A stretch of 64,000 nucleotides of DNA. Source: Cytidiella melzeri (lineage: Eukaryota > Basidiomycota > Agaricomycetes > Polyporales > Irpicaceae). Of the stretch, positions 23,559-35,055 are shown one piece after another; the stretch's first letter is position 1; every line of letters begins with the position of its first letter. Both the position numbers and the translations under genes were made by a program. The stretch lies in NCBI GenBank assembly GCA_022592445.1, contig JABYQR010000174.1, forward strand, positions 1 through 64,000, given 5' to 3'. The notes under the pieces are model-generated. The model did not search any database, was not told the origin of the DNA, and saw only the letters and a program-made list of their open reading frames with translations.

Positions 23559-24514
23559 TTGTCGTTGTCGCGCTTGTTCTCGTCGTCGTCCTTGTCCTCT
23601 CGTTGTTGCGCTTTTTCTCCTCTCGTCGTCGAGCTCGTTCTCTACTCGTCTTCGCGCTCGTGCTTGCATGTACATACTGTTGTTTCTCCGCTCTCGCTCG
23701 CTGTCGTTTACACCATGTCATACACTTTCGATAGTTTAAATTCATCACATGCTAATATGATTCAACTGTGTGACTATGTGAAATATGATCTATTGTACAT
23801 CCGGTGTACATCAAGAAAGCACCGTGGGCTGGATGTTTACTACAGACTATACATATATATCCGTTGTCGTCACAATGTCGGTATCAACTACATCAGAAAA
23901 CAATGCAAAGGCTACCCGAGCTCCCAGCTGCTACAGAGTGCTCCGGAGAGCTACGTAGCTGCCAGAGACTTCGTTTTGTTTCCTGATGTACAGAGGAAGT
24001 CTCGGGTGCGATGTGACTTTGACATCGGTGCGCTATCTACGGAGTACGTCGACTGGATCATTATTTATTTCTATCGAAGGGATGTGAGCGCGGCATATGT
24101 CGGTGCGATGTGGTCGGATGCTGCATCGGACATCTTTGCCCGGACATACTACAGCACCTGGCAGTTGTTATATACATGTGGGGTCCGAAAAGAATTAAAT
24201 CGATTTAATTTAAATTAAAGAAATTAAATCAGCCGTGAGGAAGACGCGAGAACGGAGAAAATCAAAGAAAGTAGTACGGTGTCGTACATTGAACATTGAA
24301 GGGATTGGCCGTATGCTAGCCTGTGCAACTGGATATGGACCTGAGACGTGTATGACTCACGACAGCATTGCTACGCGAGCGCGATTCGACCGTTCCGAGG
24401 GCTTTTCCTCCATCGTCCTCCTACATCTTGAAGCGAAACATCGACATTGCCATGGAGTGGGGCCCGGGGCCACTGGCAGCATTACCCGTGTCAGCAACCT
24501 TTGTCTGCATATAT
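23559..24514. other. no supported gene; contains AT palindrome
   Basis: A 219-codon open frame on plus has low-complexity Ser/Leu/Arg composition at first and no recognisable domain, so I do not call it. At 24193-24210 there is a perfect 18-base palindrome (AATTAAATCGATTTAATT) followed by TTAAATTAAAG. The region lies between two pseudogenes. Confidence 0.5.
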
Positions 24515-27500
24515 TCAGTCAGCCAGTGCCTTCGCTATGTAGATGTCGACATTACGCACCGACGCTGTCTGGTATTGACAAGGCCGACTCCTGAATGCTC
24601 CCGCGCAATCTCTACGGTGGCAGTGCTTGCATTTACGGGGTGCTTGTCGTTTCACCGGTATAGCAACATTGCGGCCGGTTGCTGGATCCACAACCGTGAG
24701 ATTAGGCTGCTCGTGGCCACTTCCGCTGGCTACGCCTTGGTCGAGACATTTGGCCATGCGCTTTTTCCCTTTATCTCTTGAGCTGCTGTACATGACGGCC
24801 GGCCGTGCAGATGGGTCATCGGGCATGTACTTGAAAAGCTCCGATTCTTGCATGCGGCTGTGCTGTCCAAGGGCAGTTGCTACCTGCCATTCGGTGACCT
24901 CCATGTCGTGCTCGTCGTGGTGAGTTATCCGACTTGATGGAGATATCTCTTCGCTGATGGTAGTGCGCTGTGCGACGGGGATGGCCGGAATTTGTCGCGA
25001 GTCTGCCTCCAGAGCCTTTCGGATCGCTTCATAGGCTTCGCGCGACGACTCAATAGAATCTTCTTCGTTGCGAATCTCAAGCCACCGCTTGTGGTAGCTC
25101 TTCAAGTGTTCGGGCAGCTTGAAAGCACAGATACTGTAAGTACAGCAAAGCTCGCTGTGCAAAGTAAGAGTCAAAGTACTTACCTTATAATAAACCTTGA
25201 TTCCGTCGCAGTGTGTCGGCCATAGCATTGCCAGGGCGATCCAGTCCGGCTGAGAGCGTTGCGTGAACAGTCCATTGTACTGGCGACGGATGAGGCGATA
25301 GAGATGGCGCTCGTGGCTTGTGTGTACAGGTAAGATGGCATAGATGGAGTTTTGTTGTTTTGCTAAGTTTGCGTGCTTGATCTTCTCACCCTTAGCTAAA
25401 GCTTCGTTGTAGGGTAAGAATCCAAGCTTCTGTCTCGTGCTCGGAGGAAGTGGCAAGATGCCAAACGCTTCTTGCGACGAGGCATAGTCTCGTCCGTTTA
25501 CCCATCCAATTACTGATGCCTCGGCTGTCTCGGGTGCAAATGCGACTCGTGTCACATCTGCCAGCTGAGCAAGCCGATTTCGCGTCCATATATCAAACGA
25601 TCTGCGGTACGCCTTGCCAGTGCGATTGAGTGTCCCGACCTTAGGTATACATCAAGAGTGAGTTCAGCTTCTACACTTCCAGCCAAAGAACATACCCGTA
25701 GATTATGCATCAGGCAGTAATCTCGTATCAGATTCACGGACAACCGTGGAGAGGCGTTGAATGCGCCGAAGTAGCGGATGATGTTTTGATGGATACCTCC
25801 CTCGACGCTGTTTGTGCCTCGCATGCAACGATAGATGGTGAGCCCGTCTTTATCTTGTCCACGCACTGTATAGAGACTGATGTCAGGTGGGTCGGAGTAC
25901 AGCCCCATTCGGATGTTCTCGAGGATATTCCGCGCCTGTTGCCACTGGTCCTCGCCTTTGAAGAGGGGTTTGCCTGTCTTTGCGTCCTTTAGAGGGCCGT
26001 ATGTCTTGAAAACCTCGCTGACACGCTGGAATAGAACTGTTGCACAAGGCACAAGGCGCTTGACCCGCTTCCAAACCCAGTCGGACTTCCAGAGTACCAT
26101 GTCGCTGAACTTGATACCTCGTCGTTCCAGCACAACTTCTACCGCAGCTTTGTCCTCGGGATCTATAATCAACAGTGCGTCTCGAAGTGCTCGCTTGTAT
26201 GGTGCATGAATTCCGTGCTTCTGGGACACTTTGACCTGATCCGTGACGTGCCAAAGATCTCCGAGCACGCGGGAATGTATGATGGACTCCTTGTAGGTAA
26301 GAGAGGATGTTTCAGCGAGGAGAGTGTTTGCACGAAGTGTACTGAATGGGTCTGCTTCAGAGTCAGACAGCTGCTGTTCCTCAGATGTGTTATCCTCGTC
26401 TTCATCGGCATCTCTGTTATCATTGGAAGGCATTCCAGAGATGGTAGTCTCGTTATCCTGAGGAGAAGAAGTTTGATATGGTGTTGGTGGAAGTGGAGAG
26501 GATTGTGAAGGTGCGAGAGGATCAGGAATTATGTTGCAATGCTGTAGGTCCTTGAGATAACATAGAAGTCCGAATGGGGTAGCTGTTGCAAACTGGGCAA
26601 GTGAAGTCTCTTCATGTGATTTGACAAGATCATTACGAATGAGATTTCCAGACTGCAAGATGGAGGTAATGTTGACAATAACCCGAGTTGGTGTTACGTT
26701 GACTCCTGCAAACTGCTTTGGTCGATCTGGTGCAATTACTCCCAGGGCAGCGATAGATGAACCATCACGAGAAAGAAGCCGGACTGGAGTGCCAGGAGGA
26801 GAGTCTTTCGTAACAGGCTGTGCTGTGGATGTCATATCAGACAGTGTCTGATGAAGGCTCCATACTGCGTAAACGTCCAGTGCGGCGTACGTGCGATGAG
26901 CTACAGAGAGCTCCTTTTCATCCTATCCAGTACTGACACAGATACTTTCGTCTTTTGGTAGATGTCGCTTGAGAATGCGAGCAGTAAGATCTACCAGGCT
27001 GATGTTTGCACGGGTGCATAGCCCTCGCAGTTTTGCCAAGGCACCAATCTCCGTGGCTCCAGCAAAGGCCTGATCGGTAGCTGTAGAAAAACCACAGTCA
27101 TTGAAAAGACGAGTAAGGTCTCCCTTCACATGAACACCCAGCTTTCGGATCCGTGAGGCACGTAGGAAGGTGAGTAATGGAGGAGAAAGTTTGAGGTGTC
27201 CACCGTTTTCGTAAATTGAAGTCTGTTCAAAATGTAAGAAGGTAATACTATGAATGACACAAAAGGGAGATACATACATGAACCAGGAGGATAGACTTTT
27301 CATAAGCTATCGAAAGGATGGCTACCTTTCCGTATATGCCCTCAGTCACGTTGACTGGCCATTCCATATCTATCGCAACATCGAGACATTTATTTGCTGG
27401 GAGCTTCTGAAGATCTTCGAGAATGGAGTTGAGAGAATTTCGGATGCGGAAGTCGGTATTGAGATCATATACAGTCCAATCTGCTGGAACCTCAAGCACT

Positions 27501-29797
27501 ACCAAGGAATTTGGAGGCGAGATTGGATGAATGTCGTAGGTCAATGAAGGGATGGCACGCTCGAGCTCAGGCTTGTCTGCACGTGGATTGTCAGTGAAGA
27601 CCAGCTGGACATCATCATGGCTGTATGTGCGAAGAGAATGGGGAATGCGTGCTAAGACCGGCATAAACTGGTCATGAGCTTTGGTAGGTGTGAGGACTGC
27701 AGCACGCATCTCTCCGTATTTGTTCACTGTAGAGTGCAGAGCTCCGCAGACTGACTCGCCGTTGACTTTGCTGAGATGTTTGACAAGCTGTAAAAAAGGT
27801 ACATTATCAGGCTACAGTGAGTATCAAACAGTGAATTGAGTAACTAACCTTATGGCTATGATCAATTGCCAGAAAACGAGCTGACAGCATTGACATCTGC
27901 TTGTCTATCTCTGGCGCATGTCCTTCAATATACTGGTTATAGAAGCCAGTGAAGAATGTTGCAGATGGAACATAACCAGCAAAGCCATTCCGGTCATCCC
28001 ACGCACTGAACCTCTCGGGCCGTACACTGAAAGAGAGAATGGGAGAGTTCAAGCGAAGCTTCACAGCCTCAAGATACTGGAGAGCAAGCTGCTCATAACG
28101 ACAAATGTGAAAGGTACAAATGGTGTTGGTGAATGGAGAGGGGCCAATCCCGTGCTGAAACATGTGGCGTAGTAAAGCGACAAGTCTATCTGTCAAAGCA
28201 CACCTCCGAGTGCAGTGAAAGGTGAACTGGGAAGACAGCAGCGGGGGGAGAGCCTCCAGAATAGAGTGTGACCAGCTGAGATATGTCTTCTTACAGCTGT
28301 CATGGGTGCACCGGTAGCGATAGCCAACAACATATACATTTTCCTCGATGTCAACAGCACGGCGAGGTGCTTGGGGCCATCCGAGGCACTGTAGAAGGAC
28401 AGGGCTCCCATTGTCTCGAGAACGTCCAGCTTTCTTACACTGCGGACAGGGGATCCGTCCGAAGAGATGAGGTAGCCAGATAAAGAAGCGGACTCCATAG
28501 AATAGTGATGGCGAGAGCTGCGCGACATGACGTGTAGAGAAAATTGGTGCAGGGGGTGCAAGCTCGAATGTACCTGAGTCGTAGCACGTAGGCAAGCGCG
28601 ACGGATTAGACCTGCACTGCTGCGAGAGTGCATCACATAGGCTGTCGTAACGCGAGGCTAGCCAGGTGGGAATCGAAGAGCGCGGCTGGCTCTGCCATGT
28701 CGTATGACTTTGTGCTTGAGTTGTAAGCGGTGCGCTTGCTGTCTGAGAACCTTCCTGATGGTTATCAGAACAGTGCTCCTCGTCGTCGAGGTCATCCATG
28801 CGGATGTCATCTTCTGAGGTAGCGTCTGGGCTCATGCCCTCCAATATGTCGTCCAGTGACTCTTCGCTTGTCTCGTCCGACGTGAACGAGTCGACACCGT
28901 TTAAAACCAGTGCTGCAAGGGTATCTGCCATGTCAGCAGCTACAAGTGGCGGTGCTGGCTCACGCTCAACCGCTTCAGGCACAAATGGATAAGTGCCAAC
29001 GTCGGCTGGCTCCGAGTCCAAATTGTCTGGGAGCAGCACGGGACGGTGCTCAGCTCTCTGGTAGGTGTTCGAGTCGCGCTGGTCACTGCAAAGCTGAGAT
29101 GCCGTACCGAAAGCTTGCCTGCTGTTGTCAGGTAGCTGTATCAGGTCTATTGCAGGCGTTGGTTGCGCACTGGAAGGAGGCGAGGGAGCAAGAGAGGTGC
29201 GAGCACCCGAAAATGGGCTTGCTGGGCGTGTGGACGGTGCCGGACTCGGAGAGGCGTTGACAGCGTCGTCTAATGGATAAGAACATTCAGGCCATGAGTA
29301 GGTCATATTTCACGGCAAGACACGTACCGTTATCGCTATCATTGTTTGTAAGATCGGCGCGAAACACGTCGCGCCGAAGTACTATTGCAGCACTTTCCGC
29401 GGCTGACTCTTCTACGACAATACACGCTGGTATGTAAGATGCAGAGCTCTCCCATGCAATGCGAGCTTTTACGCACCTGGCCCCGTGCTTCTCATGCTAC
29501 GGACTTCCTTTTCGGCTCTTCCTGCGCGTGCCAGTTGAGTCTGGGCCGAAGGGGCTGGGTGAGATGTTTTCGGCTTCTTTGCTGTACAACATGATGATGG
29601 GCTGAGTTCAAAGAGTCTTCGAATTTGAGCATGAACTCACCTGCTGGCTCACTGGCAGAGTCCTTTGCTGCCTTTGGTGCCGTGGCAGCGCTCAAGTTCT
29701 TTCGTGGTCGCCCGACCTTTGCCCCTGGTGGGTTCTTGGTTCCAGGAGGACGGCCGCGTCGTTTGGGGGGTCCGGACTGAGTTTTCTTCGTAGCCAT
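24515..29797 (-). pseudogene. putative DDE transposase-like protein with an embedded DnaQ/WRN-type 3'-5' exonuclease, one nonsense codon
   Basis: Exons in transcript order: 29797-29641, 29581-29477, 29426-29328, 29269-27849, 27787-27278, 27222-25696, 25639-25184, 25117-24515; 1625 codons, all GT-AG and in frame. Order of parts: AT-hooks (KRRGRPPG, VGRPRK, residues 13-33); acidic disordered stretch to about 340; a Cys-rich zinc-ribbon-like domain (CPQC at 395, RCTHDSCKK) resembling DUF6729; FLAIDHSHK (D590) and LVFTDN (D660), candidate catalytic aspartates; an exonuclease with DMEW (D734, E736), HVKGDL (D799) and YAALD (D880), the DEDDy set; then TNSVEGGIHQ (E1238) and LNRTGKAY; a C-terminal CKHCHRRDC knuckle. 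A TAG at 26923-26925 (codon 864) lies inside the exonuclease where TGG is expected. The transposase role is inference. Confidence 0.75.
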
Positions 29798-30672
29798 GAT
29801 GAATGTCTCGCGCGAGAGTGAACAATCACAGCTGCTATAACGAGAAGATGAGTGACAGGTTCGGAGAGATCCAGCAGAAGTCGGACGGAGAAAAGTCGCG
29901 CGTCTCAGATATAACCATATGAAGTAAATCGTCGATATAGCCATATAGAGTAATAAAAGTTACATCGGAACGTATATAATAACCGCCCAGCACCTAGGCT
30001 TCGCCTGGGCGTGTATCTGATACTGTGCACGGCGCTACGTACACCCCTGTAGTCAATGGAACCTCGTTAGTGTCAACATTGGGCATATCAGAGTGCTGGT
30101 CAACTCTCGCTCGGATACTATAGCTAGACTCTGTTCGCACTGCCAACTTCAGGTTCTCCACATCCCAAAAGTAACCTCATCAAGATGCAGCCTCATCCTA
30201 CACGAGTACCCTACGCTAATCTTCAATCTCAACCTGACCGAACACAAACCTCCGTTATTTTGCCCGCCTGCCTGCCATGCACAGTCGCGGCGCTTTGTCT
30301 CTTTCCTACCACATAGTCAGATTGTCCGCTGCAATCAATCAAAAAAAAATCAAACGAGTGTGTCAATTGTGTACCATACAGTCAAACGTCGGGACGCAAA
30401 ACACGTCCGGTATACACAGGGGGAAAAGCTTAACCAAGGTAAAGTATTCGAAGCTTCAAAGCAAGTTGCGTGAAAGGAAATTTAAACCGCTGATGCGTTC
30501 CAGAGAGACGAAAAGAGAAAACAAGCAGCAAGAGAAAAAACTAGATGATTGTAAAGGACTGTATGAGGCGCAGTAGAGCAAAAAAGTGGCAAGAATGTAT
30601 GTCAAGGAGGGGGGTATAGAAGGGGCTGCAAAGGTATCCTGCCGTACGCGAGGTAGGTGTGATAATCAAATT
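29798..30672. other. no supported gene; upstream region of the exonuclease-like gene
   Basis: CGATATAGCCATATAGAGTA and GATATAACCATATGAAGTAA are similar neighbours at 29910-29950. A hairpin CGCCCAG..CTGGGCG with a GGCTTCGCC loop lies at 29987-30012. No terminal repeat matching the 24.2-kb side could be found, and no gene is apparent. Confidence 0.5.
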
Positions 30673-33600
30673 TTAGGGATCCTTTTCTCCAACGGGCTGT
30701 TCCTCGTGATGTTGTGTCTGATGCGCTGGAATACATGTCAGGGAGTGCTGGAAACAGGCATGGTGTTATCAGAGTGGTGATACTCACCTTCGCTATCGTC
30801 AGTAGCATGATGAGAGGGCGTGGCAGTCTCGACTTTGGGACTTTCCGGCGGCGCGTCACGGTTCTCATGTACGATTTCTTCTGGCGACTCGTCCGGAGGG
30901 ATTCCGTGAGGGGCCTCTACAGCACCGTTGGTGTGAGCTTCGATAGTGTCGTCAGCCTTGTGAGCTTCCGCGGGAGCTGAAGTTTCTTCTGTACTCTCGA
31001 GCACTTCAGCCTCGTCCACATGAGCGACCTCAGGTGCCTCGGCTGTGAGAGCCTCGTGAGTAACCTCTATGGCACTATCGTCATTGTCCTCGAGAGTCTC
31101 AGAAACTTGCGTTTGCTGCGAAGGGTGTACATGGTCAGGACCCGCGACAGCTTGAGCCTCTTCTGTCGTCTCGGGTATTGTAGGCTCTTCGACAGCTAAA
31201 GCAATGGCACCTGTGACAGGGACGTGTTCAGGAACAGCAGGCTGTTCTTGGGCTACGGAGGTGTCAGCATTCTCCTCAGCTGATCCCGCTTCGGCAGAGG
31301 GTGCGAGAGGTTCAGTTGTACACTCCGATGAAGGAGCTTCAGATACCTCGGGCTTCGGAGCATCGACTTGAGGTGCAACGCTCGAAGAAACAACTTCTTC
31401 CTGGACCGGAGGCTCTTCGACCACAGGAGGAGCTGTCGAGACCTCGTCTTCAACTGACGTCGGGGCTGGTGCAGGCACATCAGGTTCGTCATGGTCAACA
31501 GCATCAGCCAAGGGGTTCGCGGGTGCGCTTTTCGCGACATCAACAACATCCTCAGTCGGCTGGGTAAGAATTCCGTCGTCAATGTGTTCAGGACCTGCGA
31601 CAACTTGAGCCTCTTCTGTCGTCTCGGGTATTGTAGGCTCTTCGGCAGCTAAAGCAGTGGCACCTGTGATAGGGACGTGTTCAGGAACAGCGGGCTGTTC
31701 TTGGGCTACGGAGGTGTCATCATTCTCCTCAGCTGATTCCGCTCCGGCAGAGGATGCGAGTGGTTCAGTTGTACGCTCCGATGAAGGAGCTTCGGATACC
31801 TCGGGGTTCGGAGCGTCGACTTCAGGTGCAACACTCGAAGAAACGACTTCTTCCTGGACCGGAGGCTCTTCGACCACAGGAGGAGCTGTCGAAACCTCGT
31901 CTTCAACTGACGTCGGGGCTGGTGCAGGCACATCAGGTTCGACATGGTCAACAGCATCAGCCCAGGGGTCCGCAGGTGCGCTCATCGCGACATCAACAAC
32001 ATCCCCAGTCGGCTGGGTAAGGATTCCGTCGTCGATGTGTTCAGAGGCCGGCTCGACGGACGCTGCGTGCTCAGATGCTTGAGCGAGGGCAACAGGTTCG
32101 CTGGTCTCCAGGGCGATCTGCGGACCAGGTGTGCTACCGGTAAGGACAACAGTCTCAGGTGCAGGAGGCAGCTGCTTCCCCGCATCCACCTTCGAGTCTT
32201 CAGCAGCAGACGCAGCAACATCAGAAGAGATAGACGGTCGCGCCGACGCCCCCTCTTCAGTCTTCACAGGCTCAATAGCAGTCGGGGTGACGTCACTCGT
32301 TGAAGCGGGCTCAGCATCAACAAAAGGAACAGGGGACAAGTCTTTCTCTTCCTCCTTCTTGGCGTCAGAAGAGATAGACGGTCGCGCCGACGCCCCCTCT
32401 TCAGTCTTCACAGGCTCAATAGCAGTTGGGGTGACGTCGCTCGTTGAAGCGGGCTCAGCATCAACAAGAGGAACAGGGGACAAGTCTTTCTCTTCCACCT
32501 TCTCGGCGACGACTGGTGCAGCTGCACCAGCAGTGACAGCGGCAGCCACCGCTTTCGGAGCGACAGGCACGTCCTCCTTCGACTCGTGCTGGACCTCATC
32601 CACAGTGACTATACCCAGTCCCTGAGGTGCAGACTCCCTAGAAACCTCGACCGCATTCACTGGTTCAGTCTCCTCTGGCAAGATCTCACCCATCTCGCCA
32701 ATCCGCGGGCTCTTGGTCGACGCGGCCTTGGAGCTGCCCTTGCCCTTCTGCGTGGGCTTCGCCGTGACGTCCCGCTCGCTCGTATTATAATTTGAAAAGA
32801 AACTGAACCGCTTGATAGTCGGGGAAAAGTTGAAGCTCCTACGGGCTCGCGTAGACGGGGCAAGAGATGGTCTGGGCGACGAGGGTCTCCGCGTAGGTTC
32901 GAATTGAGGAATAGGAGGCAGCGGGGGAGGTGCAGGGCGCGTGTACGTCTGCTCAATCACGACGAGGTTGTACTTCCACACTGACGGCTTCAGCTGCAGC
33001 ACGACAAACATCGGCCAGTTGGCTGCGATGGGATCGAGCAGGGTGTCGCTCCAGAAATCGAAAAAGGCTTCGTCGATGGTGACAGTGCCAACGTGTGTTA
33101 GCAGCGCAGGCAGATTTCGAGTTGCCTCTGCTCCGGCTTCACTGTGCTGGTCAGCGTCTGCACGAGGATTGTCCATGGATGACCTGCGACCCCGCCCAGG
33201 AGAAGAAGCACGACGTTTCTTATTTGATGCAGCCGTGGCGGAGGGAGATGCAACCTTTGGTGTGGTAATTTCGACATCATTATCCGCGATTGTGAGGTTC
33301 AGGTCCTGGCCAAGTGTGCTCTCCCCGAAGCCAAGCTTGGAGAAGTCTGCCCAATCCGTCGGTGGCGCAGCGGTATCGCGACCGTGGCCGTTAGCGGGGA
33401 TTCTGTTGGCAGCGCCAAGGGAAGATGACCGTCTGCGGTGCGGCTGCGAGCGTGTGACAGGGCTTTTCGGGGGTAGAGGATCTTTGGGATTGGGAGGTGA
33501 GATTGGCTTTCCTTGCTCGTCTGGTACGAGAGTGAGGATCCGGAGAGTCTCGTCGTCCAGAACGTGCGACAAGGCTAACACCTGATCGCCGTCTAGAGCC

Positions 33601-35055
33601 TGATTCTTGATGTCCTCCCATACAGACAAAGCATCCTCCGTGAGAACAGCATTGCCCGCAGCCTGCGCCTGTATGGCTTTCGAGATCAGGTGAAGAGGGT
33701 GTTTGCGGGGTGGATTTGTTGAGTTCATCGTCGGCAACTCAGTACTCAGACGAACGAATAGAGCCTCGTAGCGGCGAGTAGAGAAGCGTGGACGTGCCAG
33801 AAATGGGAGGTCTTCGTTGGCATCTGTTGACGATCCAGTACCGTACGGGTAATGATTCACCAACTCGGACAGTCGTACGGGCATCTTCATCAGCGATGAT
33901 TCCTCTCTGTACTAGGTTTAGGTGATGCATTCTGAGAATAAGCAGAACCAACTCACCGAACGTGTGCCAAGAACAAATGTTCCAATACCCTTCCTGCAGT
34001 TTCCCACCGCTTGTAGAAGTCGGCCCAATCTTCATCCTTGTTTACCCGCTGTGCAGACACTAGCCAGAGACCAAGCAGTTTCGTTAGTTTGCTTCCAGAC
34101 GAGCCAGTTACTTCAGCATGAGCTGCGAGAGACTCTATGATGTCCAAAGTAGCCGCCAACAGCTGCACGTGCCCTGGCGGAAGCAACGGCACGAGCGTCT
34201 TGGAGAAAGCCGCCGATGGGAAATCGGCCGCACGCTCGGACGTTGCAAACGTCGCGTACCAGTCCCACTCGGACGCGTCTTTTCCAAAAGATGTGCCTTC
34301 GAGCTTGAGATGACGAAGTCCCCAACGCATAACAGCGGCGACGTCGTGCGTTGAGCGCGTGTATTTGAGCTCGGAGTCGAAGAGGGCGGACGAGGACTCG
34401 GGGTTGGAACTAGGGAGTTTCGAGCCCAGGGAGAGGATGTAGAGGGACACAAGTCGCTGCTGCACTTGCGCCGACGCCGCATACCAGTGAGGGTGCATGA
34501 GCCCGAGAGTCTCGAGACCTACGAGCAAAACCGTCAACAACAGAACGTATAGCAACGCGCGTGAGAGTATCCGGTGGAATAGAGCATAGACACACCTCCA
34601 TGTTCAATGATAGCTTTTGAACACGCCTGCACCAGTGTTAACGTCTCTGCAGGGCTGAGCCTTTGCTCGCCCGCTGTCAACCCTCCTGATTCCTCTGAGC
34701 CTGACTCAAACACAACATCCAAAGCACGGTTGCTTTGTTCCTTTTGCACTGGGAGGTTGAGCGTGAGATGCGGCGGCGGTGTCTCGAGAGCAGTACTCCT
34801 TCGCGAGTTGTCGACGTTCTTGGACTTTGTCCGGAACAGCCCAAGTGGTGAATCCTTGGACTGGCCTTGGGGGAGTCGAGCATTGTCGCTGAAGTGAGCC
34901 GTAGAGGGTGAGACATTGGGTGGTGATACTGCCTCGTATTTGCCGTCGAGAAGGGTGGGCGCAGAGGAGCGTTTCTCGACGGTTGGGCTCGTGGGAGACG
35001 TAGAGTCTTTTTCGTCCTTCTTACGTCCAAAAACCTTTGAGAAAAACGAGGGCAT
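30673..35055 (-). CDS. Msb1/Mug8-domain protein
   Basis: Exons in transcript order 35055-34596, 34518-33957, 33906-30788 and 30725-30673 give 1397 aa. The start MPSFFSKVFGRKK is the conserved beginning of basidiomycete homologues. Residues about 140-420 form the Msb1/Mug8 domain (LMHPHWYAASAQVQQRLVSL, YTRSTHDVAAVMRWGLRHL, LPPGHVQLLAATLDII, SKLTKLLGLWL, RLSELVNHYPYG). A later conserved piece is DPIAANWPMFVVLQLKPSVW, then FNFSPTIKRFSFFS. The long C-terminal tail is acidic, Pro/Ala/Glu-rich and built partly of internal repeats. Yeast Msb1 acts with Cdc42/Rho1 in polarised growth; that role is extrapolated. An in-frame upstream ATG exists but lies in promoter-like sequence, so 35055 is preferred. 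Confidence 0.85.
31139..32044 (-). repeat. two tandem 453-bp copies inside the Msb1/Mug8 gene
   Basis: Copies at about 31139-31591 and 31592-32044 are nearly identical and 151 codons long. They encode repeats containing HIDDGILTQPT and EPPVQEEVVSSSVAP. Frame is preserved, so the tail length can vary by unit number. Confidence 0.9.
32221..32508 (-). repeat. two tandem 144-bp copies inside the Msb1/Mug8 gene
   Basis: Copies start at about 32221 and 32365, each 48 codons, with DAEPASTSDVTPTAIEPVKT in both. This repeat lies upstream in the protein of the 151-residue repeat. Confidence 0.9.

What the first reader, a model, noticed from the sequence alone, without database searches (positions are those of the whole stretch)
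24515..29797. A putative DDE transposase core interrupted by a DnaQ/WRN-type exonuclease, with AT-hooks and zinc motifs
Eight exons join in frame into 1625 codons. Candidate catalytic acids D590 (AIDHSHK), D660 (VFTDN) and E1238 (VEGGIHQ) surround a complete DEDDy exonuclease motif set (D734/E736, D799, Y876/D880). An exonuclease domain lying between the second and third acids of a DDE enzyme would be a new architecture, perhaps coupling cutting with end trimming or repair. I know this protein type only as an unnamed basidiomycete expansion with a DUF6729-like domain; the DDE assignment is inference.
Basis: partly seen in the sequence, partly recalled or inferred. Interest (0 to 1): 0.88.

Follow-up and report, generated by a model that had tools for sequence, protein, structure and literature searches.

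The report
Fungal jumping gene with built-in exonuclease
The protein is the probable transposase of a complete 5.8-kb DNA transposon, with a DNA-trimming enzyme placed inside its catalytic core; that layout was published in 2013 for a transposon group called Dada, but this element has inverted-repeat ends, 8-base target duplications and insertion sites unlike those described for that group.

Summary
It lies in a DNA transposon, window 24160-29987 (5828 bp), with terminal inverted repeats (21/23 in the best-preserved copy; 16/23 here, one end being damaged) and a perfect 8-bp target duplication. Paralogous empty sites exist for two of three insertions. At least four related loci lie in the genome; two of them differ mainly at silent sites (dN/dS 0.03-0.04 in the two putative core halves, 0.10 in the exonuclease). 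Motif order D590-D660-[DEDDy exonuclease]-D1086xxH1089-E1238 matches resident MULEs except for about 400 residues between second D and DxxH. So DDE-plus-exonuclease is probably right, but not new: Kojima and Jurka (2013) reported a DEDDy exonuclease at this place in Dada transposons of Laccaria and Ectocarpus. Differences from Dada as published: true terminal inverted repeats, 8-bp instead of 6-7-bp duplications, no small-RNA-gene target found. No RNase H fold could be confirmed; the models were uninformative.

The parts
24160..29987 (-). whole transposon, 5828 bp, transposase gene on the minus strand
   Evidence: ends set by where the copies C84, C100 and C445 stop aligning; inverted repeats and duplications at those ends
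24152..24159 (.). left target site duplication CAGCACCT
29988..29995 (.). right target site duplication CAGCACCT
24160..24182 (+). left terminal inverted repeat
29970..29987 (-). right terminal inverted repeat, shortened by a 9-bp deletion relative to C100 and C445
29641..29797 (-). exon 1, start codon and two AT-hook-like motifs (about 29699-29758)
   Evidence: AT_hook below cut-off
29477..29581 (-). exon 2
29328..29426 (-). exon 3
27849..29269 (-). exon 4: DUF6729 (28041-28556) with C395/C398/C441/C446, and first D590 (27861-27863)
27278..27787 (-). exon 5: second D660 (27590-27592), exonuclease D734/E736 (27362-27370)
25696..27222 (-). exon 6: exonuclease D799, Y876, D880, then D1086xxH1089 (26248-26259) and E1238 (25801-25803)
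26923..26925 (-). in-frame TAG at codon 864; a sense codon in C445 and C100
26818..27379 (-). WRN-like DEDDy 3'-5' exonuclease (residues 731-899), split by intron 5
25184..25639 (-). exon 7
24515..25117 (-). exon 8, C-terminal cysteine cluster C-x2-C-x4-C-x8-C (24578-24631)

Best explanation
A cut-and-paste DNA transposon of the DDE class with a C/DxxH motif, built like the exonuclease-bearing Dada transposons. Its one large protein binds the ends (cysteine-rich DUF6729 part and AT-hook-like N terminus: inferred), cuts and joins with a split RNase H-type active site D590-D660-E1238 (inferred from motifs and constraint), and inserts with an 8-bp staggered target cut (shown by duplications and empty sites). 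[quoted passage not shown] Most likely it trims 3' ends that cleavage exposes, probably those of the donor gap, since the transposon's own 3' ends must stay intact to be joined (inference). The window copy looks dead: a stop codon and a damaged right end.
For: 8-bp duplications in 3 of 3 copies with both ends (two perfect, one 7/8), inverted repeats of 21/23 (C445), 20/23 (C100) and 16/23 (window). Empty sites: in 8 of 8 loci examined for the window insertion the repeat runs through the insertion point with one octamer; four are 96.9-99.5% identical with the exact octamer, the others 88.5-92% with one or two changes in it; likewise 3 of 3 for C100 at 92-93%. Random control: 0 of 200000 position pairs reach 18/23 (the window copy itself would not either), 3 of 200000 have a perfect 8-bp flank match. 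Spacing D-D, D-xxH, H-E: 70/426/149 here, 77/21/118 in both of the two resident MULEs looked at, of 36 matches. D590, D660, all DEDDy residues and D1086/H1089 are invariant in 3 of 3 aligned copies. dN/dS, window against C445: 0.04 and 0.03 in the two core pieces, 0.06 DUF6729 part, 0.10 exonuclease, 0.32 acidic linker. Published precedent at the same insertion point.
Against: No RNase H fold shown: single-exon models pLDDT 39.4 and 34.5. The core without the exonuclease has no Pfam match listed at E 10, no meaningful NCBIfam match, no credible PDB profile match, and hhalign to the two MULEs gives probabilities 0.4% and 0.1%, out of register. E1238 is seen in 3 of 4 copies; the C391 contig ends four residues before it. 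[CD]xxH occurs six times in the protein, one more of them (989) between D660 and E1238, though C391 does not keep that one. dN/dS is one pairwise comparison without a significance test, and exons 1-3 are not in it. The exonuclease's role is untested.
Confidence: 0.82

Rival explanations
1. It belongs to another superfamily with 8-bp duplications (hAT, P or KDZ/Zisupton) that took up an exonuclease independently.
For: 8-bp duplications and short terminal inverted repeats fit hAT, P and Zisupton better than Dada with 6-7 bp and no TIRs; [quoted passage not shown]
Against: No transposase family in Pfam is listed for the core at E 10; the position of the exonuclease and the N-terminal four-cysteine motif fit the published Dada description.
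Confidence: 0.2
2. The exonuclease-bearing lineage is its own superfamily, sister to Dada, with TIRs and 8-bp duplications.
For: Three features given for Dada were tested and not met: 6-7-bp duplications, absence of TIRs, small-RNA-gene targets.
Against: Superfamilies are drawn mainly on transposase sequence, which could not be compared; the ends of the Laccaria families are not described in the parts of the paper that I read.
Confidence: 0.25
3. The protein is an accessory or domesticated host protein and the element is moved in trans by another transposase.
For: Few copies: three with both ends; strong constraint also fits a host gene.
Against: The other long frames inside the element run against this gene or overlap it in another frame (not searched for families); copies sit at unrelated loci with different duplications, and three of the four are damaged: stop codons in the window, C100 and C391, further insertions in C100.
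Confidence: 0.06
4. The exonuclease is a passenger that is not used in transposition.
For: The paper reports it only for Dada of Laccaria and Ectocarpus, so other Dada presumably move without it; stops lie in it in the window and C100 copies.
Against: All five DEDDy residues are invariant in 3 of 3 aligned copies and dN/dS is 0.10.
Confidence: 0.2

Closest known systems
Dada transposons with exonuclease: Laccaria bicolor (Dada-1_LB, Dada-2_LB in the paper's table) and Ectocarpus (Dada-1_ES), Kojima and Jurka 2013, PMC3706591
   Same: DDE transposase with DEDDy exonuclease between the second D and DxxH; as for Dada in general, an N-terminal four-cysteine motif, introns, about 70 residues between the two D (68 in zebrafish), a protein of similar size (1402 residues in zebrafish) and an element length within 4.7-11 kb.
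   Different: Here: 23-bp TIRs, 8-bp duplications, insertion in dispersed repeats or unique DNA. Published Dada: no TIRs, 6-7-bp duplications, insertion in U6, U1 or tRNA genes. C-terminal motif here C-x2-C-x4-C-x8-C, in zebrafish C-x2-C-x9-H-x8-C. Whether the Laccaria families themselves have the published kind of ends is not stated in the parts read.
KolobokD (DEDDh/DnaQ exonuclease) and KolobokE (lambda-type nuclease), PMC9587614 (passages)
   Same: DDE transposons of the C/DxxH group that encode an exonuclease.
   Different: TTAA 4-bp duplications; DEDDh, not DEDDy, in KolobokD; the passages seen do not place it between second D and DxxH.
ISL2EU, PMC4482050 (passage)
   Same: DNA transposons that encode an exonuclease.
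   Different: YqaJ exonuclease in a separate ORF.
MULE (PF10551) elements of the same genome
   Same: Motif order D, D, C/DxxH, E.
   Different: 21 residues from second D to CxxH against 426 here; no sequence match.

Membership tests
Dada | DDE triad, 68 residues between first and second D in zebrafish | tested here: met
   D590-D660 = 70, E1238; motif level only; both D invariant in 3 of 3 aligned copies, E in the 3 copies that reach it
Dada | DxxH after the second D | tested here: met
   D1086LWH1089, D and H invariant in 3 of 3
Dada | DEDDy exonuclease between second D and DxxH (Laccaria and Ectocarpus) | tested here: met
Dada | N-terminal CCCC zinc motif | tested here: met
   C395, C398, C441, C446, invariant in 3 of 3; the two spacings are in reverse order relative to zebrafish
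Dada | C-terminal CCHC zinc motif | tested here: inconclusive
   C-x2-C-x4-C-x8-C instead
Dada | 6-7-bp target duplication | tested here: not met
   8 bp in 3 of 3 copies, one with 7/8 identity
Dada | no terminal inverted repeats | tested here: not met
   21/23 in C445, 20/23 in C100, 16/23 in the window
Dada | insertion inside snRNA or tRNA genes | tested here: not met
   3 of 3 sites: no tRNA in the joined flanks; no snRNA or tRNA match in the flanks or, for two of the sites, in empty-site loci; C445 has no uninterrupted locus for Rfam
Dada | sequence similarity to Dada transposases | not testable with these tools
   protein database off; the paper's Dataset S1 and Repbase not available
MuDR/MULE | PF10551 MULE domain | tested here: not met
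   no Pfam match listed at E 10
hAT | 8-bp duplication | tested here: met
   the 8 bp of hAT from passages of PMC12730594
hAT | hAT Pfam domains | tested here: not met
   no Pfam match of the core listed at E 10
KDZ/Zisupton | KDZ Pfam domain | tested here: not met
   no Pfam match of the core listed at E 10; that Pfam holds a KDZ model is recalled; 8-bp duplication is shared
Kolobok | TTAA 4-bp duplication | tested here: not met
   definition
DDE transposases in general | RNase H fold | tested here: inconclusive
   two single-exon models, pLDDT 39.4 and 34.5

The most novel reading that the evidence does not exclude
The exonuclease-carrying elements form a transposon lineage separate from RNA-gene-targeting Dada: the split-core transposase recognises true inverted-repeat ends, makes an 8-bp staggered cut without an RNA-gene target, and needs its inserted exonuclease to finish the reaction, so that cutting and 3'-end trimming are coupled in one protein scaffold.
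Probability: 0.27. Interest if true: 0.6.

Novelty: new variant of a known kind. Interest (0 to 1): 0.4.

Why it matters
It gives defined ends, target duplications and empty sites for a transposon whose protein has the exonuclease layout reported in Laccaria, and shows that features used to describe Dada (no TIRs, 6-7-bp duplications, RNA-gene targets) need not go with that layout. With defined ends, the published suggestion that the exonuclease processes 3' ends during transposition becomes testable.

Tried and rejected
Rejected: 'new architecture' (published 2013; found by paper search). Rejected: small-RNA-gene target. Rfam at gathering scores: 0 matches in the window and 7 loci. Permissive Rfam (E 0.1) on 17 loci: 4 matches, all microRNA models below gathering and overlapping at one place of L043, about 1.3 kb inside the C100 element, where one search shows other DNA inserted; 1, a microRNA model below gathering on L062, some 15 bases past the matched repeat. 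ARAGORN: 0 in the window, in 18 loci and in the three joined flanks. Not found: relatives in viral contigs (four alignments; two of them used the same two peptide patterns) and genome contigs (one alignment). These scans rest on two short patterns each, so they would miss distant relatives. Rejected: ISL2EU-type separate exonuclease ORF. Led nowhere: structure of two single exons (no fold search was run on them); profile searches of the PDB; hhalign to MULEs; PADLOC scan of the exonuclease; NCBIfam. A 50-nt last intron from a simple motif scan was replaced by a 66-nt one that keeps the frame. The TIR pattern search (8 hits, reversed control 0) used a pattern drawn from these same ends, so 5 of its hits are the known ends; new ones are C212 (no mismatch) and two with 3 mismatches. 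Papers: PMC3706591, parts 1-3 of 4 and passages; PMC12730594, introduction and passages; PMC9587614, PMC4482050, PMC6431247, PMC5718144, PMC4455052, PMC8290104, PMC12477816, passages only; other papers, search listings only; Muszewska 2017 not held. I know of no print of this exact combination (exonuclease Dada-type protein with TIRs and 8-bp duplications); that rests only on the searches in this library.
Full report
What was checked. The gene lies on the minus strand. The paralogue C445, with exons placed by alignment, has no stop from exon 4 to exon 8 and a sense codon at this place, as has C100, so the window copy carries a nonsense change. C100 has another stop in the exonuclease part and C391 one upstream. 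Pfam finds DUF6729; phmmer finds the WRN exonuclease at residues 731-899 of the spliced window protein; the C445 exonuclease passes the Pfam DNA_pol_A_exo1 cut-off, while the window's exon pieces alone do not.

It is a transposon. Aligning C84 with C100 and C445 shows sharp ends. Both ends carry one inverted repeat, about GGC(A/G)GTT(A/G)TTATATAC(A/G)TGTGGG: 21/23 identical in C445, 20/23 in C100, and 16/23 in the window, where the right end has a 9-bp deletion. The flanks are 8-bp duplications: CAGCACCT twice, GCCTTCAG twice, and TCGAGCCC/TCGAGCGC. Of 200000 random position pairs in the window none reached 18/23 inverted identity (a bar that C100 and C445 pass and the window copy does not), and 3 had a perfect 8-bp flank match. 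Searching the genome with the joined flanks gave 35 rows for the window and 67 for C100, the elements' own flanks included. Of the loci looked at base by base, 8 of 8 and 3 of 3 run through the insertion point with one octamer: exact in 4 of 8 and 2 of 3, with one or two changes in the rest; some have small gaps elsewhere. C445 sits in otherwise unique DNA, so it offers no empty site. The C100 copy spans 21.5 kb because other DNA is inserted in it.

The protein was under selection. Between the window and C445 copies (dS 0.59-0.93 by segment), dN/dS is 0.04 for residues 540-690 and 0.03 for 1066-1273, the two pieces that would make up the DDE core; 0.06 for the DUF6729 part; 0.10 for the exonuclease; 0.11 for the stretch after it; 0.06 for residues 1274-1470; 0.20 for the C tail; 0.30 and 0.32 for the disordered N part and the acidic linker. 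The lowest values are thus on either side of the exonuclease, though segment limits were mine and the differences from 0.06 were not tested. Residues 1-120 are not in the comparison. Both D, all DEDDy residues and D1086/H1089 are invariant in the three aligned copies, window, C445 and C391. E1238 is present in the window, C445 and C100 and lies beyond the end of the C391 contig.

The core. In two MULE transposases of the same genome (2 of 36 matches, motifs picked by eye) the spacing is D-77-D-21-CxxH-118-E; here it is D-70-D-426-DxxH-149-E. The order is the same, with some 400 extra residues between the second D and DxxH, filled by the exonuclease, a conserved stretch and an acidic linker. 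This is motif evidence. Sequence and profile comparisons of the core found nothing, and two single-exon AlphaFold models had mean pLDDT 39.4 and 34.5, which speaks neither for nor against a fold.

What is known. A paper search led to Kojima and Jurka 2013 (PMC3706591; parts 1-3 of 4 read). They describe Dada: DDE transposase, DxxH motif, N-terminal CCCC and C-terminal CCHC motifs, introns, 6-7-bp duplications, no terminal inverted repeats in the U6 and U1 families, insertion in U6, U1 or tRNA genes. The Laccaria families carry no target name, and the paper says that all Dada with clearly definable termini sit in small RNA genes; this implies, but does not state, that the Laccaria ends were not defined.

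What differs. Three published features are not met: duplication length, absence of TIRs, and RNA-gene target. I therefore do not file it as a member of Dada as defined. It is built, and probably works, like the exonuclease-bearing Dada elements. The sequence comparison that would settle membership could not be made (data sets not available).

Mechanism. Shown: insertion with an 8-bp duplication and no loss of target sequence at two sites; selection on core and exonuclease. Inferred: DDE chemistry; end recognition by the cysteine-rich DUF6729 part; exonuclease trimming of exposed 3' ends. Because the transposon's own 3' ends are joined to the target and must stay whole, I favour trimming at the donor gap; this is reasoning, not a result.

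Noticed in passing
window 23989-24159 and 29988-30015: The window element sits 20 bp from the end of a dispersed repeat whose copies share a fixed end, AGGCTTCGCCTGGGCGTGTA or close variants, with a possible small hairpin and unrelated sequence beyond; it may be the 3' end of a Helitron-like or SINE-like element (inference).
   Followed up: partly
L020 4339-5146 (C391), + strand: Beside the C391 copy's right end are reading frames with a GTGSGKT helicase-type motif, resembling RecQ-like helicases (name recalled, no family search).
   Followed up: no
C212:108714-108765 (L045): A 52-bp piece identical to the window element's left end, with no other part of the element in the 3 kb held: a truncated copy or remnant.
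   Followed up: partly
C1:348138-348160 (L048): An end with 3 mismatches to the TIR pattern but no match to the element or its protein in the 3 kb held; perhaps a related family.
   Followed up: no
C423:86527-87867 and C705:141297-141644 (L039, L038): Exonuclease reading frames of Pfam PF01612 outside the transposon; C705 has stops inside, and a stretch FDMEWPV nearby gives only a weak match to the transposon's exonuclease (E 0.81).
   Followed up: partly
window 30738-33911 (-): A 1057-residue open frame with internal repeats and no Pfam match at E 1.
   Followed up: no
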